A stretch of DNA of 64,000 bases from Peptoanaerobacter stomatis (GTDB taxonomy: Bacteria > Bacillota > Clostridia > Peptostreptococcales > Filifactoraceae). The stretch lies in assembly GCF_000238095.2 (NCBI RefSeq), contig NZ_JH815225.1, positions 274,724 to 338,723 of the forward strand, read 5' to 3'. Shown here piece after piece: positions 16,573-51,577 of this stretch (position 1 is its first letter; every line of letters begins with the position of its first letter). Made by a program: the position numbers and the translations under genes. Below the pieces are notes generated by a model. That model searched no databases. It was not told where the DNA came from and was given only the letters and a program-made list of their open reading frames with translations.

Positions 16573-18501
16573 ATGGAAGGCGAACAAATAATCCTTAATG
16601 ATATAGAGAGATTAAAATATGAAAAATTATTAAAATTACAAGAAAATGGCAAAGATCCATTTAAAATAGAAAAATTTGATCAAACACATCATTCTAAAGA
16701 GATAAAAGATAATTTTGAAGACTTTGACGGAAAAGAAGTATCAGTAGCAGGAAGAATGATGAGTTTTAGAAGTTTCGGTAAAGCAACTTTTATTGATATA
16801 CAAGACAAAGACGGAAGAATTCAAAGTTATGTAAGAAAAGATCAGCTTGGAGAAGAGCTTTATAAAGAATTTAAAGAATTTGACATCGGAGATATAGTAG
16901 GTGTTACCGGAATAGTATTTAAGACACAAAAAGATGAGATATCTATAAAAGCGTCAAGCATACAATTATTGTCAAAATCTCTTAGAATATTACCGGAAAA
17001 ATATCACGGTCTTAAAGACATGGATCTTAGATATAGACAAAGATATGTTGATTTAATTGTAAATCCTGAAGTAAAAGAGGCTTTCCTAACAAGAAACAAG
17101 GCTATAAAAGCTCTTAGAGATTTCTTGGAGCAAAGAGAGTTTATAGAAGTGGAAACACCTATACTTAACACTATTGCCGGAGGAGCTGCCGCAAGACCGT
17201 TTATAACTCATCACAACACTCTTGATATAGATATGTATTTAAGAATAGCAAATGAATTATATCTTAAGAGATTGATAGTAGGCGGATTTGAAAAAGTATA
17301 TGAAATGGGTAGAATGTTTAGAAATGAAGGAATGGATATGAAACACAACCCTGAGTATACAGCTATGGAACTATATCAGGCATATGCAGACTATGAAGAT
17401 ATAATGAAACTTACAGAAGAAGCTGTTGCATATATGGCTGAAGCCGCAACAGGTTCAACGCTTATAGAATATCAAGGCAAACAAATAGACTTAAAACCGC
17501 CTTGGAGAAGATTATCTATGACAGATGCAATAAAACAATATGCTAATATAGATTTTGACACTATAAAAACAGATGAAGAAGCGGTTGAATTGGCAAAAGA
17601 ACATGCTGTAGAAATAATACCTGAAATGACAAGAGGTCATGTAATATCAGCTATATTTGAAAAATATTGTGAAGAAAAATTGATAGAACCTACATTTATA
17701 ACACATCATCCTGTAGAAATATCACCACTTTCAAAAAGAAATCCTGATGATCCGAGAATAACAAACAGATTTGAGGCATTTGTAAATACTTGGGAAATAG
17801 CAAACGCATTTTCAGAATTGAATGATCCTATAGACCAAAGAGCAAGATTTATGGCTCAATTAAGACAAAGAGAGCTTGGGGATGAAGAAGCTCAAATGCT
17901 TGATGAAGATTTTCTGAATGCAATAGAAGTAGGTATGCCACCTACAGGTGGACTTGGAATTGGAATAGATAGAGTAATAATGTTACTTACAAATTCAGCA
18001 AGTATAAGAGACGTAATCTTATTCCCTACAATGAAGCCAATGGCTAAAAAAATGGCTGAAAATCAAGATTTATCATCTCAAGATGACAAATCTTGCAATG
18101 AATCTATTACAGATTTGAAGAAAATAGATTTGTCTAAAGTGAAAGTAGAGCCTTTATTTGAAGATATGGTAGATTTTGAAAAATTTTCTGAGTCAGATTT
18201 TAGAGTAGTTAAGGTTAAGAATTGCGAAGAAGTTACTAAGTCAAATAAATTATTAAAATTCACATTAGATGATGGAACAGAAAAGGATAGAATAATTTTA
18301 TCAGGTATAAAAAATTACTATAGTGCTGAAGAATTAATAGGTAAAACTTTGCTTGCGATAACTAATTTACCGGAAAGAAAAATTATGGGTGAACCGTCAC
18401 AAGGAATGCTTTTATCTGCTATATATGAATATAATGGTGAAGAAGCGTTAAATCTCATTATGTTGGATGGAAATATACCTGCTGGAGCAAAAATATATTA
18501 A
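16573..18501 (+). CDS. lysS: lysyl-tRNA synthetase (class II) with C-terminal tRNA-binding domain
   Basis: A 642-residue protein that charges tRNA-Lys. Residues 1-485 are a normal class II LysRS: OB-fold anticodon-binding domain ([21 protein letters not shown]), motif 2 around [16 protein letters not shown] and motif 3 [15 protein letters not shown], ending with the conserved FPTMKPM. About 150 extra residues follow: an acidic linker, then a tRNA_bind (MetRS C-terminal/EMAP-II-like) domain with [37 protein letters not shown] and [12 protein letters not shown]. This domain usually raises tRNA affinity in MetRS or Trbp111; on LysRS it is uncommon. AGGAGG precedes the ATG. From 18026 on, the sequence is duplicated at 51036, so the 3' end may be supplied by the island. 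Confidence 0.95.
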
Positions 18502-18812
18502 AATAAGAATTTATTATAAAAAACTGATGTTGAATTTAATAATTTGACTTCAGTTTTTTATGTTTTAGTATTATTATATTTTCAATTATAAATACTGTGT
18601 AAGTCTAATGTTCAATCTAAAAATTACTTAATAAATAAGCTGAAAATAAACTGATAAAGTTAGAAGTTAAGGAGGTGATTTTATTGAATCCTTTAGTTGT
18701 ATATTATTCATATTCAGGAATAACAAGAAAATTAGCAGAAGATATTGCATTGATTACAGATGGAGATTTGAGAGAACTTAAACCACAAAAGCCTTATTCC
18801 TTTTCATATAAT
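18026..18812. repeat. long direct repeat, left copy (lysS 3' end to flavodoxin start); putative attL side
   Basis: This 787 bp segment recurs at 51036-51926, where a 114 bp MITE is inserted. Homology begins at CTACAATGAAGCC in the lysS FPTMKPM codons and ends at TTCATATAAT in the flavodoxin gene. In the lysS part I count 11 mismatches in about 476 bp. The two copies bracket the whole accessory island, consistent with integration of an element that carried its own lysS 3' end. Confidence 0.85.
18520..18559 (+). terminator. terminator after lysS
   Basis: AAACTGA pairing with TCAGTTT, then a T run. The same structure is present in the right duplicate at 51531-51570. Confidence 0.65.
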
Positions 18813-20180: not shown

Positions 20181-20207
20181 ATAGAGTTTAGTATAATTGA
20201 ATTTTAT

Positions 20208-22092: not shown

Positions 22093-23592
22093 ATGGCTTC
22101 AGTAGCACAACCGGCAAAGAAAAGCTATTTCTTTGGGAAGGGTTATTCTGATGTACTAAACACCATTAGAGGCGCTTGGCAAAGGAATTTCGATTCTATA
22201 GGCAGATATAAAGATAATATTGCAGATGCGAAATATAGCGGAAAAGGTAGCTTTATTTTTCAATTGATTTTGAACGTTTTAGCAATGATTTCTGTCATAG
22301 TATTTGGATCTATCATCACTGCCGTAGTAAGCTTCATAAATATTGTGGTTGTGTTGGTAATGATGAGCTTTATTTATCTTGGATTTTCTATTATTTGGCT
22401 CACTGATAGAATATACTTGATGCGAAAAAAAATTTTTACGGCTTGTCATGAATGTAAAGAGAAATCATTAATTCCTACATATATTTGTCCAAAGTGTGGA
22501 GCAAAGCATACTAATTTAACACCTGGCGTTTATGGAATTCTGAAGCGAACATGTGTTGGCGAAGATCCAAACTCTTATTGTGGAGAGCAGTTACCAACAA
22601 CATTCTTTAATGGAAGAAGAAACCTCGAAGCAATTTGTCCTCATTGTTCAACTCCATTAGCTGATAGAGAGTCAGTTCCAATTTGTATTCCTGTTGTTGG
22701 AGGCAGATCAGTTGGAAAAACTGCGTTTATTACGGCGTTTTCAAAAGAATTTATAGATGAAGTAGCTCCTTCAAAACATTGGGAAACAGAATTTTATAAT
22801 GCTAACAAAGAAAATATATATAAAGAAATTGAACAGGATTACCTGACAGGAAGCACTAGAATGACGGATAGACCTCAAGACATTAATAAGGCAAGTTCAG
22901 TTTCGTTCAGTTTCTTTGTTAAAGGTGCATCATTTAAACCAGAAAGGCTTGTCCATGTTTATGATATAGCAGGAGAAGTGTTTACTGATAATAGTGAGAA
23001 TGAAATACAAAAGCAATATGAGTATTGTCAAGGTATTGTCTTGATGATAGATCCGTTTGCAATTCCTTCTGTTAGACATAGATGCGAGAGTCAATTAGCA
23101 CCGGAAGATATTGCGGGTATCGGAAAAGCAGATATAAATGGAATCGTTGATTCTTTCTTAAATAAACTAAGAGAAGTTACTGGTTTAAGTGATAAAAAAA
23201 TGTCCGCGGTACCGTTGGCTGTAGTTATTAGTAAAATTGATTCAGCAGGATTGATGACCGAAATAGGTGATGCGGCAATTAAAACTAAGATGGCAGCATT
23301 TCCTGATAAATTTACAGATTATTTTGATACACAGGATTATTTGTGCAGGAAATTTCTTAAAGAAAATGGAATGGAAAGTTTCTTGAACAATATTGATTTG
23401 AAATTTAAGGATAACAGATTTTTCTCATGTACAGCCATTGGACATACAAGAGATAAGGGACAATATAATCCACAAGGTATACTTCCTCCAATGCAGTGGC
23501 TATTTGGAAAAGCTGATTCAAAGATGGCGCAAACATGGGACGATATTAAGTTTAATAAAAAAGTAGCGAAGATAGAAGAAGATACACCTTAA
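22093..23592 (+). CDS. membrane-anchored zinc-ribbon GTPase (double-GTPase type)
   Basis: 499 residues. Two membrane helices (about residues 55-105) are followed by treble/zinc-ribbon cysteine pairs (CHECKEKS, CPKCGAKH, CPHC; about 117-190) and a P-loop GTPase domain. The P-loop is GGRSVGKT (about 202-209), the Walker B/G3 equivalent YDIAGE (about 291) and the G4-like specificity motif VVISKID (about 379). This matches, from memory, the TRAFAC-like DO-GTPase families found with GAP1 proteins in predicted conflict systems. It likely acts as a membrane-attached GTP switch. AAGGAGG precedes the ATG. grpE-like follows 12 bases on. It is clearly paralogous to 39268-40725 (shared PAKKSYFFG start, cysteines and C-terminus). 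Confidence 0.8.
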   Translation: MASVAQPAKKSYFFGKGYSDVLNTIRGAWQRNFDSIGRYKDNIADAKYSGKGSFIFQLILNVLAMISVIVFGSIITAVVSFINIVVVLVMMSFIYLGFSIIWLTDRIYLMRKKIFTACHECKEKSLIPTYICPKCGAKHTNLTPGVYGILKRTCVGEDPNSYCGEQLPTTFFNGRRNLEAICPHCSTPLADRESVPICIPVVGGRSVGKTAFITAFSKEFIDEVAPSKHWETEFYNANKENIYKEIEQDYLTGSTRMTDRPQDINKASSVSFSFFVKGASFKPERLVHVYDIAGEVFTDNSENEIQKQYEYCQGIVLMIDPFAIPSVRHRCESQLAPEDIAGIGKADINGIVDSFLNKLREVTGLSDKKMSAVPLAVVISKIDSAGLMTEIGDAAIKTKMAAFPDKFTDYFDTQDYLCRKFLKENGMESFLNNIDLKFKDNRFFSCTAIGHTRDKGQYNPQGILPPMQWLFGKADSKMAQTWDDIKFNKKVAKIEEDTP

Positions 23593-23604: not shown

Positions 23605-24342
23605 ATGCATGAAAATGAAAATAACGATAACGAGGTGGTTATGATAGGATCTGTGGATTCTCCCATTAATCAATCCGAGGATACTGTAGCACCAACATCT
23701 GATAATACAGAAAATCATTCAAAAATAAATGAAACGGATGCAGAAGATGGTGTAATAACAGATGAAGGTGAACCATCAGATATAGAACAAGCAAAAGAAC
23801 CTGTATCAAACAATGATACGCAAATTGTGATAAAGAGTTTGGAAAGTTTGACGGAAAAAGTGGAACATATGAATAAACTTTTTGAACAAAAAATCGCACA
23901 TACAACACATGAGGAAAAAATAGTAGACCAGATGCATGCAGAATTGCAAAAATACAAGCAAGATATGTATTCGCAACTAGTGCGGCCTATTTTAATGGAT
24001 ATAATAGAAATTCGTGATAGCATTCTACGTATTAGTGCGAATTATGCTTTAAAACCAGAAAACGAACAAAGTATCCCACTTAAAATGTTCAAAGACTATG
24101 CGTATGACGTACAGGATATTTTGGAAAAAAATAATATTACTATTTATGATGGAATTGAGGGAGAGACCTTTAATCCCATAAAGCAGAAGGCAATTAAAAA
24201 AGTAAATACGCCAGTGGAAGATCTTCACGGTAAAATTGCAGAAAGCTTAAGTAGTGGATATGAATATTTGGGAAAACCAATTTCACCAGAAAAAGTTTCA
24301 GTATATGTTTATCAAAAACCAGAAGAAACTGAGGAGGCATAA
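23605..24342 (+). CDS. GrpE-like nucleotide exchange factor
   Basis: 245 residues. The first 75 are acidic and disordered-looking. A long helix follows (ESLTEKVEHMNKLFEQKIAH, then HEEKIVDQMHAELQKYKQDM) that resembles the GrpE dimerisation coil. A C-terminal region (VEDLHGKIAESLSSGYEYLG, then KPISPEKVSVYVYQK) resembles the GrpE beta domain that opens the HSP70 nucleotide cleft. Its position four bases before a dnaK supports this role. It is divergent from housekeeping GrpE, so it probably serves only the HSP70s of this operon. AAGGAG lies before the ATG. Confidence 0.7.
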   Translation: MHENENNDNEVVMIGSVDSPINQSEDTVAPTSDNTENHSKINETDAEDGVITDEGEPSDIEQAKEPVSNNDTQIVIKSLESLTEKVEHMNKLFEQKIAHTTHEEKIVDQMHAELQKYKQDMYSQLVRPILMDIIEIRDSILRISANYALKPENEQSIPLKMFKDYAYDVQDILEKNNITIYDGIEGETFNPIKQKAIKKVNTPVEDLHGKIAESLSSGYEYLGKPISPEKVSVYVYQKPEETEEA

Positions 24343-24346
24343 ATAT

Positions 24347-25984
24347 ATGGCTAAATATGTATTTGGAATTGATTTGGGAACTACATATTCTTGTATTTCC
24401 TATGTGGATGAGACGGGAAGAGCAACCGTTGTAAACAATGCAGAAGGAACAAACACTACTCCTTCTGTTGTAAATTTTGCTAGTCCAAATCAGGTTGTAG
24501 TGGGACAGGTAGCAAAAGAGAATGCGGTTATTGACCCTAATAATACTATTTCATTAGTAAAAACATTAATGGGAAAATCAGATTTTGCGATTAATTATAA
24601 TGGCGAAGACAAATCCCCAGAAGAAGTATCAGCATATATTTTAAGAAAAGTAGCAGAGGACGCAGGTAAGCAGCTTGATACGGAAGTTAAAGATGTTGTT
24701 ATTACATGTCCTGCATATTTTGGTACAGCTGAAAGAACGGCTACAAAGAATGCTGGTATTATTGCGGGTCTTAATGTTTTGGAAATTATTAGTGAGCCTA
24801 CAGCAGCAGCTTTATATTATGGGTGTGCAAAAGAACAAGCTGAAAAGACAATTCTTGTTTTTGACTTAGGTGGAGGTACTTTTGATGTAACCATTATGAG
24901 TATAAGTTCAGAAAAAATTGAGGTTGTATGTTCAGATGGTAACCACGAACTAGGTGGAAAGGATTGGGACGAGGCAGTAATGAGATATCTCGCAGAAGAA
25001 TTTATCTCAGAAACTGGATTTGACGGAGAATTTGATGAATATGCTCAGCAGGATATGAGATTAAAGGCTGAGAAGGCAAAGCAACAACTTTCTTCACGAG
25101 AAGAAGTACCAGTTATGTTAGATGCAGCAGGTTTAAGAGCGAGAATTAGCCTTTCAAGAGAAAAATTTGATGAAATTACTTCTACATTACTTGGGGAAGC
25201 AATTGATAAAACAGATGCTGCAATAGCGATTGCTAAAGAAAAAGGTTACAATATTGATGAAATTCTTTTGGTAGGTGGCTCTACAAGAATGCCTCAGGTA
25301 ACAAAAGCATTGGTTGATAAATATGGAATGGAGCCTAAGATTCTTGAGCCTGATGAAGCTGTTGCAAAGGGTGCATCTATTCATGCTGTTAATGTTTACG
25401 TAAATAATCAAAAGAGCCTTGAACCAGGAGATTCAGGCGAAACCACAGTAACCGTAGGCGGAACAACAAAAGAAATAAATGCTGATGATTACAAAGAAGA
25501 GCTAGCTGTTCAACCAGAAATGATGAGTATAGGTGGAAAAACTCAGAAAGTTGTAGTTGCAACAACAAAGAGCTTTGCAATCGAAGTGCTAGCAAACAAT
25601 CAGCCTAAATGTTGCAACATAATTATTAAAAATCAAGCAATGCCTGATGGATCAATAACAGTTTCAAAAACATTTGGTACTAATGAAGCAAATCAGGATA
25701 ACTGTGAATTAGTAGTATATGAAAGTGACTTTATGGAAGATTATTTCGATATTGACGAAGATTTTGTCTTAGGAACAGCAACATTGGAATTGCCAGGAAA
25801 TCTTCCAGCCGGCGCTCCAATTGAAATAACCTTTACGTTGAATACAGAAGGAATATTGGAAGTTAGCGGTGTAGATAAGACAACTAATCGTGAAGTGCAT
25901 GCTACTATGCAGTCAAAGGGGATTATGGCCGAAGAAAAAGTAGATGAACTTAAAGAAAAATCAAAACGTATGGTTGTAATGTAA
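24347..25984 (+). CDS. HSP70 (DnaK-like) chaperone
   Basis: 545 residues. The ATPase domain begins YVFGIDLGTTYSCISYVDE and contains FDLGGGTFDVTI (about 171-182), GNHELGGKDWDEAV and LLVGGSTRMPQV. The substrate-binding beta domain follows a modified linker. The helical lid is shorter than in DnaK (about 600-640 residues). A Gly/Thr/Glu-rich insertion (SLEPGDSGETTVTVGG) sits between the domains, and the canonical DVTPLSLG linker-following motif is absent, so substrate coupling may differ. It is a specialised, operon-borne HSP70, not the housekeeping copy. The start is ATG 24347 with GAGGAGG just upstream, inside the end of the GrpE gene. Confidence 0.9.
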   Translation: MAKYVFGIDLGTTYSCISYVDETGRATVVNNAEGTNTTPSVVNFASPNQVVVGQVAKENAVIDPNNTISLVKTLMGKSDFAINYNGEDKSPEEVSAYILRKVAEDAGKQLDTEVKDVVITCPAYFGTAERTATKNAGIIAGLNVLEIISEPTAAALYYGCAKEQAEKTILVFDLGGGTFDVTIMSISSEKIEVVCSDGNHELGGKDWDEAVMRYLAEEFISETGFDGEFDEYAQQDMRLKAEKAKQQLSSREEVPVMLDAAGLRARISLSREKFDEITSTLLGEAIDKTDAAIAIAKEKGYNIDEILLVGGSTRMPQVTKALVDKYGMEPKILEPDEAVAKGASIHAVNVYVNNQKSLEPGDSGETTVTVGGTTKEINADDYKEELAVQPEMMSIGGKTQKVVVATTKSFAIEVLANNQPKCCNIIIKNQAMPDGSITVSKTFGTNEANQDNCELVVYESDFMEDYFDIDEDFVLGTATLELPGNLPAGAPIEITFTLNTEGILEVSGVDKTTNREVHATMQSKGIMAEEKVDELKEKSKRMVVM

Positions 25985-26049: not shown

Positions 26050-28170
26050 ATGAGTATTAGAGTAGGTATAGATTTAGGAACAACATTTAGCGCGGTGGCG
26101 AGAATCAATGAAGTGAGTGGCAAACCAGAAATTATCAAGAATAGTTTTGATAGTCCAATAACTCCGTCTGTTCTTTGTTTTGAAGAAAATGGCAGAATTC
26201 TATTTGGTGAAGACGCAAAGAGCATGCAGGGAATGGGAAATATAAATGCCATTGCTTTTTTCAAAAGAAACATGGGAAATGATCAGTTCTGTGTGGAGTT
26301 TTTTGGAAAAACATATAATGCAACGGATTTATCCGCAATATTTTTACGTAGTATTGTAAAGGAAGCTGAACAGTCATGTAGAGAAAAAATTGATTCTGCC
26401 GTAATTACTGTTCCAGCCTACTTTACTCATAAAGAAAGACAAGCAACTATCGAAGCAGGGAAAAAAGCAGGCTTGGAAGTAATTGCAATTATAAATGAAC
26501 CAACCGCAGCCGCATTTGCATATGGCTTGAATGAAAAGGACATAGAACAAACCGTTCTTATATATGATTTAGGTGGTGGAACATTTGATGTTACGATTGC
26601 TCGCATTAATAAAGAAAAAATTGATATCTTAGGTAGCGATGGCAATCATGAGCTTGGCGGAAAAGATTGGGATGATTGCATAGCAAGATATTTAGCTAAT
26701 CAATTCAACGAAGAATATGGTGTGGATTTAACCGAAGATGATGAAATGGTTGCGTCATTACTTGTAACCGCAGAATCTGTAAAAAAACAATTAACTTCAA
26801 AAGATGAGGTCACAATCCCAATAGTATATAAAGATATTCGCGGTAGTGTTTCAATAACAGAAGAATTATTTGAGGACATTTCAGATTTTCTAATTGGAGC
26901 AACAAAAGATCTCACAAATAATTTGATAGAATCAATCGGATTATCATGGAGTGATATTACTGGAGCTATTCTAGTTGGTGGATCAACTCGAATGAGAATG
27001 ATACATAATTATGTGAGAGATATTTCAGGCAAAGATCCATTAGGTGGAGTTAATGTTGACGAAGCAGTTGCTCTTGGAGCGGCAATTAGAGCAAACATTG
27101 ATGATGCCGGAAAAAGTGTTACACCGACATTAATGGGAATTTTAGGTGGCAAGAAAAATATTAATATAATTGGGGCAAAGGAAGTTTCAGATGTAACAGC
27201 ACATGCTTTAGGAATGATAGCTGTTAGCGAAGACGGTGAACGGTATGAAAATAGTGTAATCATTCCGAAAAATACATCTATTCCTGCCACAATGACACGA
27301 TCATATAATTTTAGAACGAGAGCTAAAGACAATGAACTTGAGGTATACGTGCTCCAAGGGGCGTACGCAAGACCTTTAGACAACACAATCATTGATAAAT
27401 ATACAATAACCAAAATTGAAAAGACAGATAAGAATCCATCAGTAATTGAAGTTTCATATAAATATACATCAAATGGTGTTGTGGATGTCAGTGCAATCCA
27501 AAAAGATACGGGAAAAACACTTCCTATACGTATTGAAAAGGTGCCGGATGACATGAGCTGGACAGATGGATCTCCTAAAGATCAGATGGTAGCAATTGTG
27601 CCACTAGAAGTTGAAGTAATTCTTGCTGTCGATCTTTCAGGAAGTATGTCGGGCAATCCAGTTGCTAAAGCACAAGATGCGATGAAAGGATTTGTAAAGG
27701 AACTAGATCCAGAATTTACGAAAATTGGATTGTTGGCATTTGCTGATAGGACCAAAATGGTTGTCAAACCTACAAATGATTTTATGAAGGTTATAAGAGG
27801 AGTTGAAGGCATTGATGTTGAAGATGTTGGAATATGTAATAGAGCAGAACCATTTACAGATGCCTTTAATGAACTCAAAATGTCAAGGTTTGATAAGAAT
27901 AAAGATAAAATTCGATACTTGGTAGTCTTGACTGATGGTGTATGGGACGATCCTCATTCTGCTATTAGAAAAGCTAAAAGATGTCATAGTGAAGGAATCG
28001 AAGTAATGGCTTTAGGATTTGGAGGAGCAGATGAACATTTCTTGAAGCAGATTGCATCAACAGATGAATTTGCTTCGCTTACAAATTTATCTGAATTGAC
28101 GGGTTCATTCTCTAAGATTGCACAGGCGATTGGAGATAGTACTCCAGGATCAGGCTTAAAAATGATTTAA
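26050..28170 (+). CDS. HSP70-vWA fusion protein
   Basis: 706 residues. Residues 1-380 are an HSP70 ATPase domain (VGIDLGTTFSAVARINE, YDLGGGTFDVTIARI, GNHELGGKDWDDC, AILVGGSTRMRMI). A beta-rich substrate-binding-like part follows (ALGMIAVSEDGERYENSVII, about 395-500). Instead of the helical lid, the C-terminus is a von Willebrand A domain with an intact MIDAS (AVDLSGSMSGNP, about 525-536), a downstream threonine region and VVLTDGVWDDP (about 622). The fusion suggests metal-dependent protein binding coupled to HSP70 cycling. AGGAGA precedes the ATG. It is followed 15 bases later by the J-like protein, which may be its co-chaperone. Confidence 0.9.
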   Translation: MSIRVGIDLGTTFSAVARINEVSGKPEIIKNSFDSPITPSVLCFEENGRILFGEDAKSMQGMGNINAIAFFKRNMGNDQFCVEFFGKTYNATDLSAIFLRSIVKEAEQSCREKIDSAVITVPAYFTHKERQATIEAGKKAGLEVIAIINEPTAAAFAYGLNEKDIEQTVLIYDLGGGTFDVTIARINKEKIDILGSDGNHELGGKDWDDCIARYLANQFNEEYGVDLTEDDEMVASLLVTAESVKKQLTSKDEVTIPIVYKDIRGSVSITEELFEDISDFLIGATKDLTNNLIESIGLSWSDITGAILVGGSTRMRMIHNYVRDISGKDPLGGVNVDEAVALGAAIRANIDDAGKSVTPTLMGILGGKKNINIIGAKEVSDVTAHALGMIAVSEDGERYENSVIIPKNTSIPATMTRSYNFRTRAKDNELEVYVLQGAYARPLDNTIIDKYTITKIEKTDKNPSVIEVSYKYTSNGVVDVSAIQKDTGKTLPIRIEKVPDDMSWTDGSPKDQMVAIVPLEVEVILAVDLSGSMSGNPVAKAQDAMKGFVKELDPEFTKIGLLAFADRTKMVVKPTNDFMKVIRGVEGIDVEDVGICNRAEPFTDAFNELKMSRFDKNKDKIRYLVVLTDGVWDDPHSAIRKAKRCHSEGIEVMALGFGGADEHFLKQIASTDEFASLTNLSELTGSFSKIAQAIGDSTPGSGLKMI

Positions 28171-28185: not shown

Positions 28186-31179
28186 ATGACAGAGAATTGG
28201 TATATAGTACTTGGATTGGATTTTGATCCAAATCCAGTCCAAGATGAGACTGTTATCGAACAGAAAATTGAAGAAAAAAGAAAATTCTGGTCAAGTAAAG
28301 CTAATGATTTTAATCATGGGGCAGAATATAGAAAATACTCTCAAATGCTTCCTGACATAAAAAAGGATATGATTGGACCAGAAAATATTAGAGCGGAACT
28401 AATAAAGGATGCTTGTGATAAAACATATGGTCCTATAGACAAGACTCTGAAAATGATTAAGAAGACAGAGATTCCGCAAGATACCATTGAAAAAATGGCA
28501 ACGAAGTTAAAAGTAGATGTTGAAACTGTTAAGCGAAGAGCATCTGCACTCGGAATCAAAATCGTTGCTTCCCAAGGTGGTGATTTTCAGGCAACTTATG
28601 ATAAATACTATAAGACTAAGCCTCAGAATGCAGATAAATACAATGGAATGAATGCCCTTTTGAAGAGCTTTAATGTTACAAATCTGTATGAGTTTTTATA
28701 TGCAGGCACAACAATAAAGAATTCACAGAATTTACCATGTGATGCACTTAAACAAAGAGCAAAGGAAAGAAAAACTAAAGAATTCTATAAAAATGATAGT
28801 GTAAGTGGATCTGGATCAAAGATTTGTGGGCAGTGCGATGAGTGTTTTAAAGACGAAGCAACAAAACAGATATATGATAAATATCTCGAATATAATGCCA
28901 GAAAAACAGTTTTAGATGAGTTAAAATCTTTTTTTGAATTAAGTGGTGAACTAACTCAAGATACGTATGCAGATTATACAGGAAGACTTACTGAAATTTT
29001 CAAAAATAGAAAAGATGCTGAAAATCTATTATTGGCATTTTGCAAAGTTGAGAAGATTCCAGTTCCTGCATCTGGTGTAGAAAAGAAAGAAAACACACAT
29101 ATAAAAATATGTAGATGCGGTTGTACAAACGATGTATCAGATGGAAGAAAATTTTGTAAAGCATGCGGACTAGAGTTAGAAATCAAATGTCCAAAATGTG
29201 GAACTATTAATGATGCAACTATAAATGTATGTAAATGTGGTTTTAAATTCGAAAACATAGATAAGGCCGTATCACTATGCGAATTAGCGTCAGATGCATT
29301 AGATACAATGGACTTTAGCGTTGCGGAAATGCATTTAAAAGATGCAGATAAGTATTGGCCGGGGTCAGACAGAGTTTCGCAACTAAACGAGAGACTAAGA
29401 GATCTAAAAAGCAGGGTAGGAACAGCAGTTGAAGACATGTGTAAAGCATGCAAAGAAAAAAAATATTATGAAGCAAGAAGACAGCTGGAAAGTGTCAAAA
29501 AGTTTTCTCCAAGTTATAGTGAACCCGCTATAGAGGAAGAAATTAACAATGGAATATTAACGGCAGAAAAATTCAAATCAATTGCTCAGAGTGGAAAAAA
29601 TGAAACGGAAATAGTTGATGCATGTACAAAAGCGTACGAAGCTTGTAACGATTGCCCTGGGGTACGTGAAATTATTTCTAAATATCCACCAGCTGCCCCT
29701 ACTGAATTAGTTGTTGTAGCAGACTCATCAGCAAAAGTAAACGTATTGTCATGGAAGAGAAGTACAACAGACGGTTTGCTCTATTATTCAGTTATAAGAA
29801 AAGAAGGAGCGATTCCTATTAGTGTACAAGATGGTACTTTAATCGGCAGAGTAAGTATGTGTAGCATAAATGATCAGAATGTCTTACCTGGAATACAGTA
29901 TTTTTATGCCGTATTTGCAGAAAGGGCGGGCGTATATTCGAATGCTTTAACTTATAAAGATGCCGTAAGTAATCTGTTTGAGATATCTGGAGTTAAAATT
30001 GCTGCGGGCGATGGCGTACTACAACTAAATTGGGATCCAATCGCAGATAATGCGACAGTTAATATTGAACGAAGCGATCATTTAGGGAAAACCACAAAGC
30101 TAAATTGCAATAGCAAATCTAACTTTGTAGATAAAGACTTAAATAATGATGAAGAGTATACATATAAAGTGTATTTATCATACTCAATTGGAATAAAGAA
30201 AACGGATACTAAGGGTATAAATATATCTGGTACACCAACAAGACCTCCACTTCCAATTGAAAAACTAGTGATTAAGCCATCTCAAGGAAATGAATTCCAA
30301 ATAGACTGGGAAAACCCTGAAAACAGTGATGTGCAGTTTTTTTACTCTACAAAGAAACCAGATTTCATAAGTGGAGATCTACTCCCTGTATCTACCTTAG
30401 AAAGCACGATGAATACGCTTATTGTAAGCAAAACATCAAATACTACAGGCACATTCAAATATGAAGGTGATGATTTGATATATGTAATTGCAGTTGTAGT
30501 AAAGTCGGGGTCAGCTGTAATTGGAACTATATCAAGAGCTAGTAAAGGTGGAACCGTAAAAGTAAATAGTGCAAGCCTTGTAAACGGTAAAATCATGATT
30601 AATGTTGAGTTGCCAAAAGATGTTACGGGCTTTGTTGTATTGTATAGACATGATCAATTTCCTGATGATATATCAGATACAAGCACAACAAGAAAATATA
30701 TTCCATTAAAGCAGTATCAGTATGATGGTGGTTTGGTCATTGATTCAAACGAACTAGAGAATTATTACTTTTCAGTATTTGCAGAATTTCGGCGAGATGG
30801 AGAGAGCGATTACTCAACAGGAACAGATTATTTATTTTCTAATGTATCCAAGGAAACTATCACATACTCAATTTCTGTGAATAAGAAACTATTTGGTGGA
30901 GGAATAATTAATCTTACATTTGAGAGTGAAAATAAAAAATTCAGACTGCCGGATATTGATGTAATGTCTGCACAGGATAGAGCACCGATGTTTAAAAAGT
31001 CAGGTAAACTCTTTCACCAAATAGAGGCACAAGAAACAAATGGAAGTGTAACAATTTCTATTCCGTTGAAAAAGGGATTGCCTCGAGAAACTTATATCAA
31101 ACCGTTTTTACAAGATGAAAATCTAGCGGGAAGATATGTATTAAAAATAAAGTTAGGATCAGATCACAAGATCAGTTAG
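28186..31179 (+). CDS. large J-like / zinc-ribbon / FN3 adaptor protein
   Basis: 997 residues. The N-terminus (NWYIVLGLDFDPNPVQDETV, then a basic helix) resembles a J-domain start, but no HPD tripeptide is present. A helical middle includes a Cys cluster (CGQCDEC, about 212-219). Around residues 305-360 there are two zinc ribbons (CRCGCTNDVSDGRKFCKACG and CPKCGTINDATINVCKCG). A TPR-like helical block follows (about 360-490). From about 505 there are two or more fibronectin-III-like domains (start PPAAPTELVVVADSSAKVNV). The C-terminal 350 residues are beta-rich. It may bridge HSP70s to partners or ligands. The loss of HPD means it may not stimulate ATPase in the ordinary way. AAGGAG precedes the ATG. 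Confidence 0.65.
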   Translation: MTENWYIVLGLDFDPNPVQDETVIEQKIEEKRKFWSSKANDFNHGAEYRKYSQMLPDIKKDMIGPENIRAELIKDACDKTYGPIDKTLKMIKKTEIPQDTIEKMATKLKVDVETVKRRASALGIKIVASQGGDFQATYDKYYKTKPQNADKYNGMNALLKSFNVTNLYEFLYAGTTIKNSQNLPCDALKQRAKERKTKEFYKNDSVSGSGSKICGQCDECFKDEATKQIYDKYLEYNARKTVLDELKSFFELSGELTQDTYADYTGRLTEIFKNRKDAENLLLAFCKVEKIPVPASGVEKKENTHIKICRCGCTNDVSDGRKFCKACGLELEIKCPKCGTINDATINVCKCGFKFENIDKAVSLCELASDALDTMDFSVAEMHLKDADKYWPGSDRVSQLNERLRDLKSRVGTAVEDMCKACKEKKYYEARRQLESVKKFSPSYSEPAIEEEINNGILTAEKFKSIAQSGKNETEIVDACTKAYEACNDCPGVREIISKYPPAAPTELVVVADSSAKVNVLSWKRSTTDGLLYYSVIRKEGAIPISVQDGTLIGRVSMCSINDQNVLPGIQYFYAVFAERAGVYSNALTYKDAVSNLFEISGVKIAAGDGVLQLNWDPIADNATVNIERSDHLGKTTKLNCNSKSNFVDKDLNNDEEYTYKVYLSYSIGIKKTDTKGINISGTPTRPPLPIEKLVIKPSQGNEFQIDWENPENSDVQFFYSTKKPDFISGDLLPVSTLESTMNTLIVSKTSNTTGTFKYEGDDLIYVIAVVVKSGSAVIGTISRASKGGTVKVNSASLVNGKIMINVELPKDVTGFVVLYRHDQFPDDISDTSTTRKYIPLKQYQYDGGLVIDSNELENYYFSVFAEFRRDGESDYSTGTDYLFSNVSKETITYSISVNKKLFGGGIINLTFESENKKFRLPDIDVMSAQDRAPMFKKSGKLFHQIEAQETNGSVTISIPLKKGLPRETYIKPFLQDENLAGRYVLKIKLGSDHKIS

Positions 31180-31191: not shown

Positions 31192-32406
31192 ATGGCATTA
31201 AAGCAAACATTTATTTGTCCCTTTTGTTTTGAAGAACATAAAATTTCAAACGTACAATTTAGATGTACAAATAGACGTTGTAAAGATGTAGAAGATATTG
31301 AATTAACAAGATATGAAAATGGTGACATCTCAATTCCTAAAATGGGGAAGCCTACATTTAGGGTAGCAAGTAAAGGAATGTCAATACCTAAATCTGCAAA
31401 ATGCCCAGAATGCGGTAGCTCAACATATGCTGTAGTGTGTCCTTCTTGTCATAACAAATTACCTGAATCTACTCTTCTTGGTAAAGATATGATTATTTCT
31501 GTTGTAGGATCTCGTGATACAGGAAAGAGCCATTTCGTAGGTGTAATAATAAATGAGCTAATTGAGCGAATTTCCGTTAAGTACGGAGGAGCAATGGAAG
31601 GCTTTGATGATACAATGTCAAGATATAAAGCCGGAGCATACCAGAAATTATATATGGATATGCAAAAATTGGATTTGACAAAAAGTTCTGTTCAAGATGT
31701 CAACAATGGAGCATATAGACCATTAATTTTTACTCTCAAATTAAAACGTAAGGCATTGTTCAAGGAACAAATAGACAGTTTTACGTTGGTATTTTTTGAT
31801 ACAGCAGGAGAAGATTTAAACGATGAAGATACTATGAGTACTGTAAATAAATATATATGTAAATCTGCGGGTATTGTTTTCTTGCTAGATCCAATGCAAT
31901 TTCCAGCAGTAAGAAATCAGTTGGATGAAAACACTGTATCTAGAGCATCCTCGGTTGATTGGAAACAGGCTACAAGATCTGATGATATCATGTCAAGAGT
32001 TTCTAAATTAATTAGAAATGATAAGAAGATGAAAAGCGAAGCAAAAATTAATATTCCAGTTGCAGCAGTTTTCTCAAAATTTGATGCCATTGCACCACTT
32101 ATACCTGAAGGAAGCACTGTATTAGAAACAAGTCCTCATTGTAACGAAAAGGTATTTGATATGTCAGACTGGCATAATGTTGATAGTGAAATTCGTAGCT
32201 TACTAGTTGAATGGGGAGCTGAATCGTTTATATCACAGGTTGATGTGAACTATACCAATTATTCGTATTTCGCTGTATCGGCACTTGGAATGGACAACAA
32301 TCCTAAAGAAGATAGAAGGATAGACAGACCTCGCCCACATAGAATAGAGGATCCTTTACTTTGGATTTTAAAGGAAAACGGAGTAATTAAGCCAAGCAAA
32401 AAATAA
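31192..32406 (+). CDS. soluble zinc-ribbon GTPase (double-GTPase type)
   Basis: 404 residues without membrane helices. The N-terminus has zinc-ribbon pairs (ICPFCFEEHK, CTNRRCKD, KCPECGSS, VCPSCHNK; residues 8-90). The GTPase domain has the P-loop VVGSRDTGKSHFVG (about 102-115), G3 equivalent FFDTAGEDLND (about 200-210) and G4-like AVFSKFDAI (about 293-301). It is related to, but distinct from, the membrane-anchored GTPases at 22093 and 39268. The gene is followed after 14 bases by a GAP1-like gene, the partner expected for this class. It likely acts as a GTP switch regulated by that protein. Confidence 0.8.
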   Translation: MALKQTFICPFCFEEHKISNVQFRCTNRRCKDVEDIELTRYENGDISIPKMGKPTFRVASKGMSIPKSAKCPECGSSTYAVVCPSCHNKLPESTLLGKDMIISVVGSRDTGKSHFVGVIINELIERISVKYGGAMEGFDDTMSRYKAGAYQKLYMDMQKLDLTKSSVQDVNNGAYRPLIFTLKLKRKALFKEQIDSFTLVFFDTAGEDLNDEDTMSTVNKYICKSAGIVFLLDPMQFPAVRNQLDENTVSRASSVDWKQATRSDDIMSRVSKLIRNDKKMKSEAKINIPVAAVFSKFDAIAPLIPEGSTVLETSPHCNEKVFDMSDWHNVDSEIRSLLVEWGAESFISQVDVNYTNYSYFAVSALGMDNNPKEDRRIDRPRPHRIEDPLLWILKENGVIKPSKK

Positions 32407-35095: not shown

Positions 35096-38000
35096 ATGGC
35101 TGATTTTCCAGAATCTGCAGAGATGAAAAAAAATGTAGCTGATGTGATGACTAGGGGAATGGAACTAGTTGATTTATTTGTAAATAAAAATTATCTAATT
35201 GATATAGACCAATGTTCACCAATTCCATTAGATGACGGAGAAAAAACATTTTCAGCTATGTCCTTATTTCAAATCGATAAGATTGTATATGATTTGAATG
35301 AAAATATAAATGATAAATTAGTAAGTGTATATAGTGCTTTATCAAATTATGGTAGCTCTGCGATTCTGGTAATTTCTAGCGATGAAACAGGAGTTGGTTT
35401 TTATTTGGGTACAAGAGATACAAATAGACCAGATGTTGCAAAAGCAATTTTGAAAAAGAGCCTTAGAGGTAATTTTCCGGGTATAAATATCCTTGAAAAA
35501 AATGCATCCCAGATAGAAGCCTTTTTGCAAGATAAAATTCCAGAGGAATATTCTCACATGGCTGTGACAGCGGTTTCAATTGTGCCTAGTATGAGAGATG
35601 AAGAAGATAAGGATAGTTTTGTTCAAGGAATTGAAAAATTCATTGATTCAATGGCAGGAGAAAATTATACAGCTGTATTTGTATCATCGCCCTTAAGTAA
35701 GCAGGATTTGGAAGATAAAAAGCGAGGATACGAGGAACTATATTCTGCTTTATCACAATGTTCACAGATTGTAATGACATATGGTGAGAATGAAAGCGAT
35801 TCAGTTGCAGAAGGAATTAGTAGCGGATTTTCAAAATCAATTAATGACGGAATAAGTGACACTACAGGAAAAAATAGCGGTACTAATAGAAGTAAAGGGC
35901 GTTCTCATAACCACGGCTTCAGTTTCGGCTTGTTTGGAACTGGATTTAATATGAGCGGCGGAACAAATACGTCTATGGGTAGCTATGAAGGAACAAACGA
36001 AAGCCATACTGAGAATTATTCCGAAACAGAGACTACTAGTGATACGAAAACCAGTACTAAAACAAAAACACAAGGTACATCTGCAAGTATTCAATTAACA
36101 AGGCATAATAAAACTGTTGAAGAGTTACTTAAAAAAATAGATGAGCAACTTGAACGTATAAAAAATTGTGAATCATATGGTTTGTGGGATAGTGCGTGCT
36201 ATTTTATTGCAGATCAAGAAGAGGTGGCTATTGTTGCTGCTAATACATACAAAGCCTTAGTTGCGGGTGAAAAAACAAGTGTAGAAAATTCCTTTATTAA
36301 TATTTGGGATAGTGAATATGAACATCATGAAAAATCGCTTCAAATAATGGACTATCTTCGTTATGGTATGCATCCAAAATTTACATACGAAGCAAGTTTT
36401 TCAGGAACTGAATATGATAGTCAAGAAGTAACGGCAGCATCGCTTATAAGTGGAGTAGAACTTCCAATTTTAATGGGATTACCGCACAAATCTGTCAGTG
36501 GAGTTACATCAATTGAGGCAGCGGAATTTGGAAGAAATGTATTTCGCAAAGGCGGAGATAAACCAGACAGGGCAGTTAATATGGGTGCTATATATCATAT
36601 GGGAGAGGTATTTAAAAATAATAGAGTTGAGCTTAATCTTGAAACTCTAACATCTCATTGTTTTATTACAGGTTCCACTGGATCTGGTAAATCAAATACA
36701 ACTTCAAAGCTAATTGATGAACTGATAAAGCCAGAAAATAATGTCAAATTCATGGTTATTGAATCAGCAAAAGGTGAATATAAAATAGATTTTGGTGGTA
36801 TGCCAGGAATCAATATTTTCACCTCGAATCCCAAGTACTATTCAATGCTTTGCATTAACCCATTTGAATTTGATGAAGAAATACATGTATTGGAACATCT
36901 AGATAGATTAATAGAAATATTTAGTGCGTGTTGGCCTTTGTATGCAGCTATGCCAGCTATTTTAAAATCATCTTTTGAACGGGCATATATTATGCACGGA
37001 TGGGATTTGAACCATTCAACACACCAAGATATGGGAAATGGAAAATTTCCTAGTTTTAAAGATATCGTAAAGATTTTGCCTGTGATATTAAATGAATCAG
37101 AGTTTTCTGCTGAAACAAAAGGAAATTACGTTGGATCACTTGTAACAAGAGTAGAATCTCTTACGAATGGGTTGGTAGGCCAAATTTTTAATGGTGTACC
37201 TATTTCTGATGAGGTTTTATTTAATGAAAATACAATAGTTGATTTGAGTCGTGTGGGTTCTACAGAAACAAAAGCCCTCATTATGGGACTACTTGTATTG
37301 AAGTTAAGTGAATTTAGACAAGCGACATCCAAGGGAACTAATCTTCCATTGCATCATGTGACAATTATGGAAGAGGCACATAATTTGTTAAAAAGAACAT
37401 CAACTGATCAAGGACAAGAATCAGCTAATGTACAGGGAAAGTCTGTCGAAATGATCAGTAATTCAATATCTGAAATGCGAACTTATGGAGAAGGGTTTAT
37501 TATAGTTGATCAGTCTCCAACTGCAGTTGATATATCTGCAATAAAAAATACAAATACAAAGATTATTATGAGGCTGCCAGAAGCATTAGATTGTAAAGCA
37601 ATTGGTCATTCTATAGGACTGAATGATGAACAAATTCTTGAGTTAAGTAAGCTTGATAAAGGTGTTGCTGCAATTTTTCAAAATGATTGGTTAGAAACAG
37701 TACTAACAAAGATTGACAGATGTAGTGGGGCATATAAAATTTCGTCAGTAGTAAAAAATGATATGAATGCAGAGAAGGATGTCATTTTTAGCCTAATTGA
37801 AGAACTTATAAATGAATCTCAAGATAAAAAATATAATCTTAGTTGGCTAAAGGATTCGGTTCGTTCAAGCAAAGTAACAAAATCTTTTCAGACAACACTT
37901 GAAAAAATGGTCACTGATTTCTATGAAGAATGGATAAAGGGAAGCAAAAGAAATTTACTTGCTGAAGTAATCTTCAAAATTCTGAATTGCGGTGATTTGA

Positions 38001-38245
38001 TCAAGATGAACGAACCTGAATTGCCTGCAGGAATAAAGAAAAGTTCTATGTTAACTCCTGAGATCAGAAAGCAAGGAAATATATGGTGCGACAAGATATA
38101 TAAAGGACTAGACGTTTATGCAAACTTTTTAGATAAGTTTGTCAAGGATCAAGTATTTATGAATATCATTTTGCATCTGATAGAGGTCGATAAGAAATCG
38201 GATCAATATAAAGTTGCATTATACTGTGCAAAGCATAAAAAATAA
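35096..38245 (+). CDS. HerA/FtsK-superfamily (DUF87-type) ATPase
   Basis: 1049 residues. The N-terminal 240 residues are mixed alpha/beta with no known motif. A Ser/Thr/Gly/Asn-rich low-complexity stretch follows (about 240-335). The C-terminal half is a HerA-type ATPase: Walker A ITGSTGSGKSNTTSKLI (about 523-539), EFGR/AEFGRNVFRKGG beta-barrel-like part before it, Walker B VTIMEEAHNLLKR (about 754-766) and a sensor/arginine region IIVDQSPTAVDISAIKNTNT. HerA ATPases form hexameric pumps for DNA or protein translocation. In this operon it is the most likely motor or output module. It is the last clearly intact gene before a decayed effector-like gene. Confidence 0.8.
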   Translation: MADFPESAEMKKNVADVMTRGMELVDLFVNKNYLIDIDQCSPIPLDDGEKTFSAMSLFQIDKIVYDLNENINDKLVSVYSALSNYGSSAILVISSDETGVGFYLGTRDTNRPDVAKAILKKSLRGNFPGINILEKNASQIEAFLQDKIPEEYSHMAVTAVSIVPSMRDEEDKDSFVQGIEKFIDSMAGENYTAVFVSSPLSKQDLEDKKRGYEELYSALSQCSQIVMTYGENESDSVAEGISSGFSKSINDGISDTTGKNSGTNRSKGRSHNHGFSFGLFGTGFNMSGGTNTSMGSYEGTNESHTENYSETETTSDTKTSTKTKTQGTSASIQLTRHNKTVEELLKKIDEQLERIKNCESYGLWDSACYFIADQEEVAIVAANTYKALVAGEKTSVENSFINIWDSEYEHHEKSLQIMDYLRYGMHPKFTYEASFSGTEYDSQEVTAASLISGVELPILMGLPHKSVSGVTSIEAAEFGRNVFRKGGDKPDRAVNMGAIYHMGEVFKNNRVELNLETLTSHCFITGSTGSGKSNTTSKLIDELIKPENNVKFMVIESAKGEYKIDFGGMPGINIFTSNPKYYSMLCINPFEFDEEIHVLEHLDRLIEIFSACWPLYAAMPAILKSSFERAYIMHGWDLNHSTHQDMGNGKFPSFKDIVKILPVILNESEFSAETKGNYVGSLVTRVESLTNGLVGQIFNGVPISDEVLFNENTIVDLSRVGSTETKALIMGLLVLKLSEFRQATSKGTNLPLHHVTIMEEAHNLLKRTSTDQGQESANVQGKSVEMISNSISEMRTYGEGFIIVDQSPTAVDISAIKNTNTKIIMRLPEALDCKAIGHSIGLNDEQILELSKLDKGVAAIFQNDWLETVLTKIDRCSGAYKISSVVKNDMNAEKDVIFSLIEELINESQDKKYNLSWLKDSVRSSKVTKSFQTTLEKMVTDFYEEWIKGSKRNLLAEVIFKILNCGDLIKMNEPELPAGIKKSSMLTPEIRKQGNIWCDKIYKGLDVYANFLDKFVKDQVFMNIILHLIEVDKKSDQYKVALYCAKHKK

Positions 38246-38255: not shown

Positions 38256-39250
38256 ATGAGCAAATATTGAATTGGATATTTGCAGTTGAATAGTAATAAA
38301 AAAATATTATATGACAAACTGGAAAAAGTAATAATAAATTATGAAACCACAGTAGATGTAACCTTAGGAAGTGATGTTGCTAATATATTAGGAACTGTTT
38401 TAGGAGACAATCCGGATATAGTACATGTTACAAATCCTAAGATTGTTATGGTTGGTGGACTCCTATTTCAAAAAGCTTCTTTGTTAGGAACTATAAATAG
38501 ACGTCAAGGGACAGTAATGGAGGATGAATTAAAGAAAAAAGCAGAGGAGATAGTCTGAGAAGTAGATAAAAACGCTCGAAATGATAGAGATATTTTGATG
38601 GGAATATCTGACTATTTTCAAAGAAACATTAGATATGACTACAACGATGCAAATTCATCGAAGGGAAATAATCCAAATGCTCATAATGCATATGATGCCA
38701 TTGTTCAAAACTTGGCAGTATGTGAGGGTATTGCCAAGGCATACTCCTTGATTTTGTCCTATTTTAATATAAGAAGTATGGCGGCATCTGGTAAAGCCGG
38801 AGGGGCTTTTTCGTTAATCCTGAATCATGCATGGAATATTGTAGAATATGAAAACGAATATTATCATTGTGATATTAAGTGGGATTTGTGTGGATATGTT
38901 GATAGACAGATATATTCGTATCAGTATTTTGGATTAGATGATTCGGAGATGTCCATAGATCACAAATGGAATCTAAAGACAGTCCCTAATTGTTCAGGAA
39001 GCAAATTATCATATTATAAAAATATAACAAATTATTTGCTTATTCGAATGATCAAATATCAGATATCATACGAAGGCAATATAACATTGGAAATAGTGTA
39101 ATACGCTTAAAAATGGACGATAAGCTTTCTTTTCCACAGAATACAAATGCCTTTATGGAAGAAAGAATTAGGAATGCTTTGGGAATACATGGTTTTCAAT
39201 ATTATTTGGATGATAAATCAAGGTGTTTGATAGTACTAAATATAACATAA
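38256..39250 (+). pseudogene. transglutaminase-like protease gene broken by two TGA codons and a frameshift
   Basis: An ATG behind AAGGTGA starts MSKY, then TGA (38268-38270), then IGYLQLNSNKKILYDK to a second in-frame TGA (38556-38558). The same frame then continues through a transglutaminase-like core: Cys in LAVCEGIAKAYSLIL, His in LNHAWNIVEYE and Asp in YHCDIKWDL. It stops at 39101. A different frame carries on with NSVIRLKMDDKLSFPQNTNA to 39250, so there is a frameshift near 39085-39100. The catalytic triad is conserved but expression of the whole protein should fail. It was probably an effector or processing peptidase of the operon. Confidence 0.75.
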
Positions 39251-51511: not shown

Positions 51512-51530
51512 AATAAGAATTTATTATAAA

Positions 51531-51570
51531 AGACTGATGTTGAATTTAATAATTTGACCTCAGTTTTTTA
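51531..51570 (+). terminator. terminator after the lysS 3' duplicate
   Basis: Same structure as 18520-18559 (ACTGA pairing with TCAGT, then TTTTTT). Confidence 0.6.
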
Positions 51571-51577
51571 TGTTTTA

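What the first reader, a model, noticed from the sequence alone, without database searches (positions are those of the whole stretch)
26050..28170. HSP70 whose lid is replaced by a vWA domain
The protein keeps a full HSP70 ATPase domain but carries a vWA domain with intact MIDAS (DLSGSMS) where the helical lid should be. It is next to a conventional-type DnaK, a GrpE and a J-like protein. This suggests metal-dependent capture of a partner coupled to the HSP70 cycle.
Basis: partly seen in the sequence, partly recalled or inferred. Interest (0 to 1): 0.7.

Follow-up and report, generated by a model that had tools for sequence, protein, structure and literature searches.

The report
Hsp70 with vWA replacing lid
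A bacterial Hsp70 chaperone has swapped its peptide-trapping lid for a protein-binding vWA domain and sits in a rare, probably mobile and possibly immune gene cluster, so a familiar folding machine seems to have been rebuilt as a switch for another job.

Summary
The architecture is real. Window 26050-28170 encodes an Hsp70 (ATPase domain plus beta-sandwich substrate domain) with a vWA domain in place of the helical lid. It belongs to a conserved operon with GrpE, a second Hsp70 that is also lidless, a zinc-ribbon/FN3 protein with a J-like N-terminus, DO-GTPases, GAP1 and a HerA-like ATPase. This is the HSP70 theme of the GAP1-N2 systems of Kaur et al. 2020, whose section text does not describe this fusion. 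Two details of the finding fail: the neighbouring DnaK is not conventional, and the MIDAS keeps DxSxS and the last Asp but lacks the usual Thr in 7 of 7 members. System Hsp70s keep five catalytic residues but lost the full VLLL linker and Arg167 (16 of 16); the J-like domain lacks HPD (7 of 7). So the ATP cycle is probably kept while lid and standard J trigger are gone. In one relative another module occupies the lid position; an unrelated locus probably fused Hsp70 to vWA independently. I read it as an ATP-driven switch presenting a vWA to partners; that mechanism is inferred.

The parts
26050..28170 (+). Hsp70-vWA protein, 706 aa: NBD ~1-360, SBD-beta ~378-497, linker ~500-519, vWA ~520-696
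   Evidence: Pfam, AF2 model, alignment of 6 orthologs
24347..25984 (+). Lidless DnaK paralog, 545 aa
   Evidence: Pfam HSP70 E 5e-109; alignment; trees
23605..24342 (+). GrpE-like nucleotide exchange factor
   Evidence: Pfam GrpE E 5.5e-12
28186..31179 (+). 997-aa protein: J-like helical N-terminus without HPD (J fold not confirmed), zinc ribbon (below Pfam cut-off), FN3-like repeats
22093..23592 (+). DO-GTPase (PF19993) with hydrophobic N-terminal stretches
   Evidence: Pfam E 8e-9; hydrophobic stretches read by eye
31192..32406 (+). Second DO-GTPase-like protein (below the Pfam cut-off)
   Evidence: Pfam PF19993 E 4e-4; matches in L056, L057, L058, L059
32406..35081 (+). GAP1 (GAP1-N2 plus GAP1-M domains)
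   Evidence: Pfam E 5e-15 and 9e-14
35096..38245 (+). HerA/FtsK-like ATPase, next to GAP1 in some relatives only
   Evidence: Pfam DUF87 E 6e-12; PADLOC HerA E 4e-19; 66-85% identical over the parts held in L053, L056, L057; no match in the L058 and L059 stretches
38595..39101 (+). Transglutaminase-like ORF, weak match; may or may not belong to the system
   Evidence: Pfam E 4e-4, below cut-off; 36% identical match in L053
39223..40725 (+). Third DO-GTPase
   Evidence: Pfam PF19993 E 2e-8
18023..18812 (+). Left copy of an imperfect direct duplication (3' end of lysS plus start of a flavodoxin gene)
   Evidence: blastn 97% over 553 bp and 89% over 257 bp with 51033-51926
51033..51926 (+). Right copy of the duplication (lysS fragment and start of the intact flavodoxin gene)
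50163..50825 (+). Tyrosine (phage-type) integrase near the right copy
   Evidence: Pfam Phage_integrase E 4e-28

Best explanation
It is a dedicated, rewired Hsp70 of a GAP1-N2 / DO-GTPase system. A pair of Hsp70 paralogs (lidless DnaK plus Hsp70-vWA), probably from an old duplication, keeps the ATPase residues. The helical lid, the hydrophobic interdomain linker and the J-domain docking Arg are gone. Inferred mechanism: ATP binding and hydrolysis, reset by the operon's GrpE, move NBD and SBD-beta as in other Hsp70s. In place of clamping peptides with a lid, the cycle exposes or withdraws the vWA, which docks a partner in the same system (GAP1, the FN3 protein or a DO-GTPase) and so sets a threshold for GTPase activation. 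This would parallel the MoxR-vWA chaperone/co-chaperone pairs of the sister 'ternary' conflict systems, here in one chain. Shown: domain anatomy, conserved operon, catalytic residues kept, lid, full linker, Arg167 and HPD lost, pair found together. Inferred: ATPase activity, vWA partner, threshold role, immune function.
For: Architecture in 6 of 6 aligned orthologs. Gene order DO-GTPase, GrpE, DnaK, Hsp70-vWA, FN3-type protein, DO-GTPase, GAP1 in L056, L058 and L059; L057 has the same order with only a remnant of the first gene; L056 has a YidD gene inserted before the FN3-type gene; L055 is cut after the start of that gene. Operon DnaKs and the Hsp70-vWA family fall on one side of a branch apart from 10 housekeeping DnaKs (98/96; 99/97). 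Catalytic T11, K70, E171, D194, T199 in 16 of 16 system Hsp70s; Arg167 in 0 of 16 against 10 of 10 housekeeping DnaKs; full VLLL linker in 0 of 16 against VLLL in 8 and ILLL in 2 of 10 housekeeping (labels are E. coli numbers set by motif). HPD in 0 of 7 J-like N-termini, first 100 residues. A review says D35 of HPD bonds R167 and that the linker raises NBD ATPase about 40-fold (PMC8215388, passages). Other GAP1-N2 themes carry vWA in separate genes or fused to FNIII, YtkA or TM parts (PMC7159879 section 29). Between window and L057 nonsynonymous differences per site are 0.12 (NBD), 0.09 (SBD) and 0.19 (vWA) with synonymous sites saturated.
Against: No activity data. PADLOC matches only the HerA-like protein. 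The MIDAS lacks Thr, so classical vWA ligand binding may be altered. Loss of linker and Arg167 could also mean weak NBD-SBD coupling, so the vWA might not be moved by ATP at all. The J-like assignment is weak (hhalign probability 16%, P 0.0016; no Foldseek match at E 0.001 or better). The tree tool warned that long branches meet, so the pairing of the two Hsp70 clades, and with it the duplication, may be partly an artefact. Only 4 of 398 phylum genomes carry any such fusion, the window's own among them and one of the unrelated kind.
Confidence: 0.45

Rival explanations
1. Lid-slot sensor: the lid position is an exchangeable payload site. The module there (vWA or another) recognises an invader-derived or stress ligand, and the Hsp70 body passes the signal to GAP1 and the GTPases.
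For: L091 (same genome as L057) encodes a parallel operon whose second Hsp70 (749 aa) has about 200 C-terminal residues with no Pfam match in place of vWA; it is sister to the vWA-bearing L114 protein (100/100). That operon has a separate vWA gene. vWA is the most diverged of the three domains between window and L057 (0.19 against 0.12 and 0.09).
Against: Only one swap seen. The 1178-aa protein at the GAP1 position of L091 has no Pfam match at 0.001 and its DO-GTPase match is below the cut-off, so that operon is placed by gene order. The vWA is conserved across two phyla, which fits an internal partner better than a variable invader ligand.
Confidence: 0.25
2. Private foldase: an ordinary, slightly degenerate DnaK/GrpE/J set that folds or assembles the large FN3-type and GAP1 proteins; the vWA is only an adaptor to them.
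For: GrpE and two catalytically complete Hsp70s are encoded; SBD-beta is kept and the model matches DnaK.
Against: Loss of lid, full VLLL linker, Arg167 and HPD together. The lid slows peptide release in DnaK (PMC8215388, passages).
Confidence: 0.2
3. Metal-dependent clamp: vWA acts as a functional lid that captures a partner through MIDAS-bound metal in phase with ATP hydrolysis.
For: DxSxS and the distal Asp conserved in 8 of 8; vWA begins where the lid would begin.
Against: MIDAS Thr missing in 7 of 7 family members; the linker 506-518 is of low confidence, so a fixed lid-like pose is not supported.
Confidence: 0.1

Closest known systems
GAP1-N2 DO-GTPase systems, HSP70/GrpE theme (Kaur, Burroughs, Iyer, Aravind 2020, PMC7159879, section 29 read)
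   Same: DO-GTPases, GAP1-N2/M, FN3-repeat protein with a DnaJ-like N-terminus, HSP70 plus GrpE, and a second HSP70 gene
   Different: The paper describes the second HSP70 as lacking its peptide-binding domain; here it keeps SBD-beta and carries vWA. The J-like N-terminus lacks HPD. A HerA-like ATPase follows GAP1. Figures of the paper were not available to me.
DnaK-type Hsp70
   Same: NBD and SBD-beta fold, catalytic residues
   Different: No lid, no VLLL linker, no Arg167; vWA at the C-terminus
MoxR-vWA chaperone/co-chaperone pairs of the ternary systems (same paper, passages)
   Same: An NTPase chaperone coupled to a vWA in a putative conflict system
   Different: MoxR is AAA+ and a separate protein; here an Hsp70 is fused to vWA. 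Similarity is of layout, not homology.
Hsp70-like subunits of CoCoNuT and McrBC-like systems (PMC11090510, passages)
   Same: Hsp70 NBD/SBD recruited into a putative defence system
   Different: There it is fused to McrB/McrC homologs or separate, with degenerate ATPase motifs; vWA is in TerY-like genes

Membership tests
Hsp70 superfamily (by homology) | Actin-like NBD with catalytic Thr, Lys, Glu, Asp, Thr | tested here: met
Hsp70 superfamily (by homology) | SBD-beta sandwich | tested here: met
   Pfam match to residue 497; aligned to about 499
Canonical DnaK | Helical lid SBD-alpha | tested here: not met
   vWA follows from residue ~520
Canonical DnaK | Hydrophobic VLLLD interdomain linker | tested here: not met
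   0 of 16 system Hsp70s have full VLLL; L091 variant keeps VLL; D393 kept in 6 of 7 Hsp70-vWA proteins
Canonical DnaK | Arg167 that contacts the J-domain HPD | tested here: not met
   0 of 16 against 10 of 10 housekeeping
J-domain protein (28186 product) | J fold | tested here: inconclusive
   helix pattern fits; hhalign probability 16%, P 0.0016; no Foldseek match at E 0.001 or better
J-domain protein (28186 product) | HPD motif | tested here: not met
   0 of 7, first 100 residues
vWA domain | vWA sequence profile | tested here: met
   PF00092 in 6 of 6
vWA with complete MIDAS | DxSxS, Thr, Asp (definition recalled) | tested here: not met
   Thr absent in 7 of 7; the other two motifs present in 7 of 7
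GAP1-N2 GTPase-centric system | DO-GTPase plus GAP1-N2/GAP1-M | tested here: met
GAP1-N2 GTPase-centric system | FN3-repeat protein | tested here: met
   Pfam fn3 in 3 of 5 aligned members at E 0.1 or better, best 1.3e-8; profile matches fibronectin 1.8e-5; the window copy alone gives no fn3 match
GAP1-N2 GTPase-centric system | HSP70 plus GrpE (second theme) | tested here: met
GAP1-N2 GTPase-centric system | Second HSP70 lacking its peptide-binding domain (subset in the paper) | tested here: not met
   second HSP70 keeps SBD-beta and has vWA; a subset feature, so membership stands
Anti-invader (conflict) function | Protection against phage or other invader | not testable with these tools
   predicted in PMC7159879; no experiment seen in my searches

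The most novel reading that the evidence does not exclude
The lid position of Hsp70 is an evolvable payload slot. In this system Hsp70 has become a J-independent, GrpE-reset ATP switch that displays a recognition module (vWA, or a different module in a parallel operon), works as a heteromeric pair with a lidless paralog, and gates a GTPase immune assembly; Hsp70-vWA fusion arose at least twice.
Probability: 0.3. Interest if true: 0.78.

Novelty: new variant of a known kind. Interest (0 to 1): 0.55.

Why it matters
Hsp70s are usually treated as one conserved machine whose lid, hydrophobic linker and J-protein trigger go together. Here is a natural family in two phyla that keeps the ATPase residues while dropping all three and fitting a binding domain where the lid was. 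It gives a direct test of which parts of the allosteric cycle are needed without a lid. It also suggests a specific, testable role for chaperones in the GAP1/DO-GTPase systems, for which my searches showed no experiment.

Tried and rejected
Assembly or frameshift artefact: rejected, orthologs have the same architecture in independent genomes. Broad chaperone of the order: rejected. In the search of 198 genomes with the whole protein (own included; 2 had no match; list of places truncated) every listed match outside G000 scores no better than E 3e-88; nearly all end near residue 495, and the three that run to 608-615 lie in 621-628-aa frames of DnaK size. Plasmid or phage gene: none of the 38 matching plasmid records and not the 1 matching phage record covers 80% of the SBD-vWA query in one place. 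Known defence family: PADLOC matches only the HerA-like protein and no NCBIfam match reaches its cut-off. J fold by structure: no Foldseek match at E 0.001 or better for the 300-residue model. The VIA second look at the Hsp70-vWA model covered residues 1-499 only, so it says nothing on the vWA.

A lysS insertion 'hot spot' was considered, because homology to G001 stops at window 18068; rejected because the G001 lysS ORF itself ends at 500 aa. dN/dS ratios could not be computed because synonymous sites are saturated. Single origin of the Hsp70-vWA fusion: AU p 0.014 against a clade of all 8 Hsp70-vWA proteins plus the L091 variant, but the group was named after a first tree and the L133 branch is long. 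GAP1 in L091: not confirmed, no Pfam match at 0.001. Literature: seven full-text searches showed no Hsp70-vWA fusion in their listings, nor did the passages that I saw of PMC7159879, PMC8195603, PMC11090510 and PMC11237479; most subscription papers and all figures are outside that library.

Full report
Observation. The 706-aa ORF at 26050-28170 matches Pfam HSP70 over residues 5-497 (E 4e-104) and VWA over 523-681 (E 3e-18), both above curated cut-offs. An AlphaFold2 model built on 6 orthologs (mean pLDDT 79.5, pTM 0.62) shows an Hsp70 NBD and SBD-beta, a low-confidence linker at 506-518, and alternating strands and helices at 520-696. Foldseek's best matches are DnaK and BiP (E about 1e-46); VIA aligns residues 1 to about 499 to them, best Z 45.2. 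By sequence the vWA stretch hits solved vWA-type proteins (4cn8 2e-10, BatB 3ibs 3e-6). So only the lid is replaced; the substrate sandwich remains.

Operon. On the same strand, with gaps of -1 to 65 bp, lie a DO-GTPase (22093), a GrpE (23605), a DnaK paralog (24347), Hsp70-vWA, a 997-aa J-like/zinc-ribbon/FN3 protein (28186), a second DO-GTPase-like protein (31192, below the Pfam cut-off), GAP1 with GAP1-N2 and GAP1-M domains (32406) and a HerA-like ATPase (35096). A weakly transglutaminase-like ORF and a third DO-GTPase follow at larger gaps. FN3 rests on relatives and a profile: Pfam fn3 in 3 of 5 aligned members, none in the window copy alone, and a profile match to fibronectin at 1.8e-5. 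This fits the GAP1-N2 GTPase-centric systems of Kaur et al. 2020 (PMC7159879; section 29 read in full; passages). That section reports HSP70 and GrpE in about 14% of GAP1-N2 neighbourhoods, in a subset a second HSP70 'sans its peptide-binding domain', and FNIII proteins typically fused to DnaJ or TPR. It does not mention an HSP70-vWA fusion; Figure 6 was not available to me.

Distribution. The single genome-contig scan used two strict peptide patterns; of 43 matching stretches 5 encode a relative: a Paenibacillus-named MAG (L055), Ruminococcus flavefaciens Y1 (L056), a Lachnospiraceae MAG (L057), Bifidobacterium tissieri (L058) and a Selenomonas (L059). The gene order DO-GTPase, GrpE, DnaK, Hsp70-vWA, FN3-type protein, DO-GTPase, GAP1 is found in L056, L058 and L059. 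L057 has the same order with only a remnant of the first gene. L056 has a YidD gene inserted before the FN3-type gene and two DO-GTPase matches after it. L055 is cut after the start of the FN3-type gene. HerA-like sequence follows GAP1 in L053, L056 and L057 but is not matched in the L058 and L059 stretches. In 398 genomes drawn from the phylum, 4 have an SBD-vWA match at E 1e-20 or better: the window's genome, G469 (the Selenomonas contig again), G306 (L114, a 733-aa Hsp70-vWA followed by a similar J-like/zinc-ribbon protein) and G576. GAP1-N2 itself is found in 10 of 398 phylum genomes, 9 above the cut-off, and in 8 of 396 genomes of the Bifidobacterium phylum. Of the 10, the window's genome and G469 have Hsp70-vWA. 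G332's contig starts just upstream of GAP1, so its Hsp70 part cannot be judged. In the fetched stretches (about 20 kb) of the other seven no match to the window's Hsp70s was found. Of the 8, one (L058) has the fusion; L107 has a lidless DnaK and L105 a partial Hsp70 (Pfam HSP70 E 1e-11), both without vWA in that gene; the stretches of the other five (12-20 kb) show no Hsp70 match, two of them (L106, L108) no match to any query.

A rewired chaperone pair. In trees of NBD plus SBD-beta the operon DnaKs and the Hsp70-vWA proteins form two groups that together stand apart from 10 housekeeping DnaKs (98/96, 99/97; midpoint root). The tool warned that long branches meet, so the pairing, and the old duplication that it suggests, is not certain. 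The two groups branch in broadly the same order, with L055 and L056 exchanged. The operon DnaK lacks the lid in 6 of 6 aligned loci, while the genome's housekeeping DnaK is full length. I counted 16 system Hsp70s (7 Hsp70-vWA, 1 variant, 8 lidless). Labels are E. coli DnaK numbers set by motif. All five catalytic residues are kept in 16 of 16. Arg167 is present in 0 of 16 and the full VLLL linker in 0 of 16 (the variant keeps VLL; D393 is kept in 6 of 7 Hsp70-vWA). The 10 housekeeping DnaKs all have Arg167 and VLLL (8) or ILLL (2). The J-like N-terminus lacks HPD in 7 of 7 (first 100 residues). A review states that D35 of HPD bonds R167, that H33 contacts L391 of the linker, and that the linker raises NBD ATPase about 40-fold (PMC8215388, passages). 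Loss on both sides of this contact is what a system that abandoned the J trigger would show. The J assignment itself is weak: helix pattern, hhalign probability 16% and P 0.0016, no Foldseek match at E 0.001 or better.

The vWA. DxSxS and the distal Asp are conserved in 8 of 8 fused vWAs. The motif-2 Thr (motif definition recalled) is replaced in 7 of 7 members of this family (C, C, G, G, L, G, S in the MAFFT alignment); my hand alignment by helix register also gives no Thr. The unrelated G576 protein has it. A Thr three residues further along (T603) is present in 4 of 7. So metal binding is possible but the classical complete MIDAS is not there. Nonsynonymous differences per site between window and L057 are 0.12 (NBD), 0.09 (SBD-beta) and 0.19 (vWA) with saturated synonymous sites.

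Lid as a module slot. The genome of L057 carries a parallel operon (L091): TM vWA protein, TM protein, GrpE, DnaK, a 749-aa Hsp70, a 929-aa protein, a DO-GTPase-like protein (below cut-off) and a 1178-aa protein at the GAP1 position without a Pfam match (TM parts and order read by eye). Its second Hsp70 has no vWA; about 200 C-terminal residues match no Pfam family. It is sister to the vWA-bearing L114 protein (100/100), inside the vWA group, so the C-terminal module seems to have changed within the group. In G576 a different Hsp70-vWA (689 aa, complete MIDAS) sits in an unrelated cluster with two further Pfam HSP70 proteins and a phage-baseplate-type protein. Holding it together with the family is disfavoured (AU p 0.014), though its branch is long and the group was named after a first tree. 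Two independent fusions are therefore likely, not proven.

Mobility. The operon lies in a segment bounded by an imperfect direct duplication: 18023-18812 matches 51033-51926 (97% over 553 bp, then 89% over 257 bp), covering the 3' end of lysS and the start of a flavodoxin gene (Pfam Flavodoxin_4). An integrase (50163-50825) lies by the right copy, type I restriction pieces lie nearby, and transposase-type ORFs lie at the left end. G+C in 2-kb steps is 0.327-0.361 from 22 to 46 kb, 0.28-0.30 at the left end of the segment (18-22 kb), and 0.235-0.322 outside it. With absence from the rest of the order sample, this points to horizontal gain. L056 also has an integrase close by. How the duplication formed is unknown.

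Mechanism and verdict. The best reading is an ATP-driven, GrpE-reset switch that presents a vWA to a partner within the GAP1/GTPase system. Anatomy and system membership are shown. Catalysis, partner, threshold role and immune function are inferred. It is a new variant of a known kind: the system class is in print; the vWA-for-lid exchange, the paired lidless Hsp70s and the joint loss of HPD, Arg167 and linker did not appear in the listings and passages that I saw.

Noticed in passing
L133 and L134 (G576, contig 1, 753000-785000): A separate cluster with an Hsp70-vWA of complete MIDAS, two other Pfam HSP70 proteins, a baseplate/VgrG-type protein (Phage_base_V E 4e-10) and a weak DUF4280/AHH protein; possibly an injection-type system using Hsp70s.
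   Followed up: partly
L091 1236-16398: Parallel operon in the genome of L057 in which the second Hsp70 carries a different C-terminal module and the vWA is a separate protein with Flg_new repeats.
   Followed up: partly
L105 (G781): A GAP1-N2 neighbourhood with a partial Hsp70 ORF, an AAA_2 ORF, and kinase, PP2C and weak vWA ORFs, which mixes two of the published themes.
   Followed up: partly
window 18023-18812 and 51033-51926: Long direct duplication of the lysS 3' end around a ~32-kb segment; origin of the duplication unclear.
   Followed up: partly
window 48105-50041: Type I restriction HsdR-like gene in three ORF pieces inside the segment, probably decayed.
   Followed up: partly
window 19144-21179: Transposase-type ORFs (HTH plus DDE_3 pair, and an rve/HTH ORF) at the left end of the segment.
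   Followed up: partly
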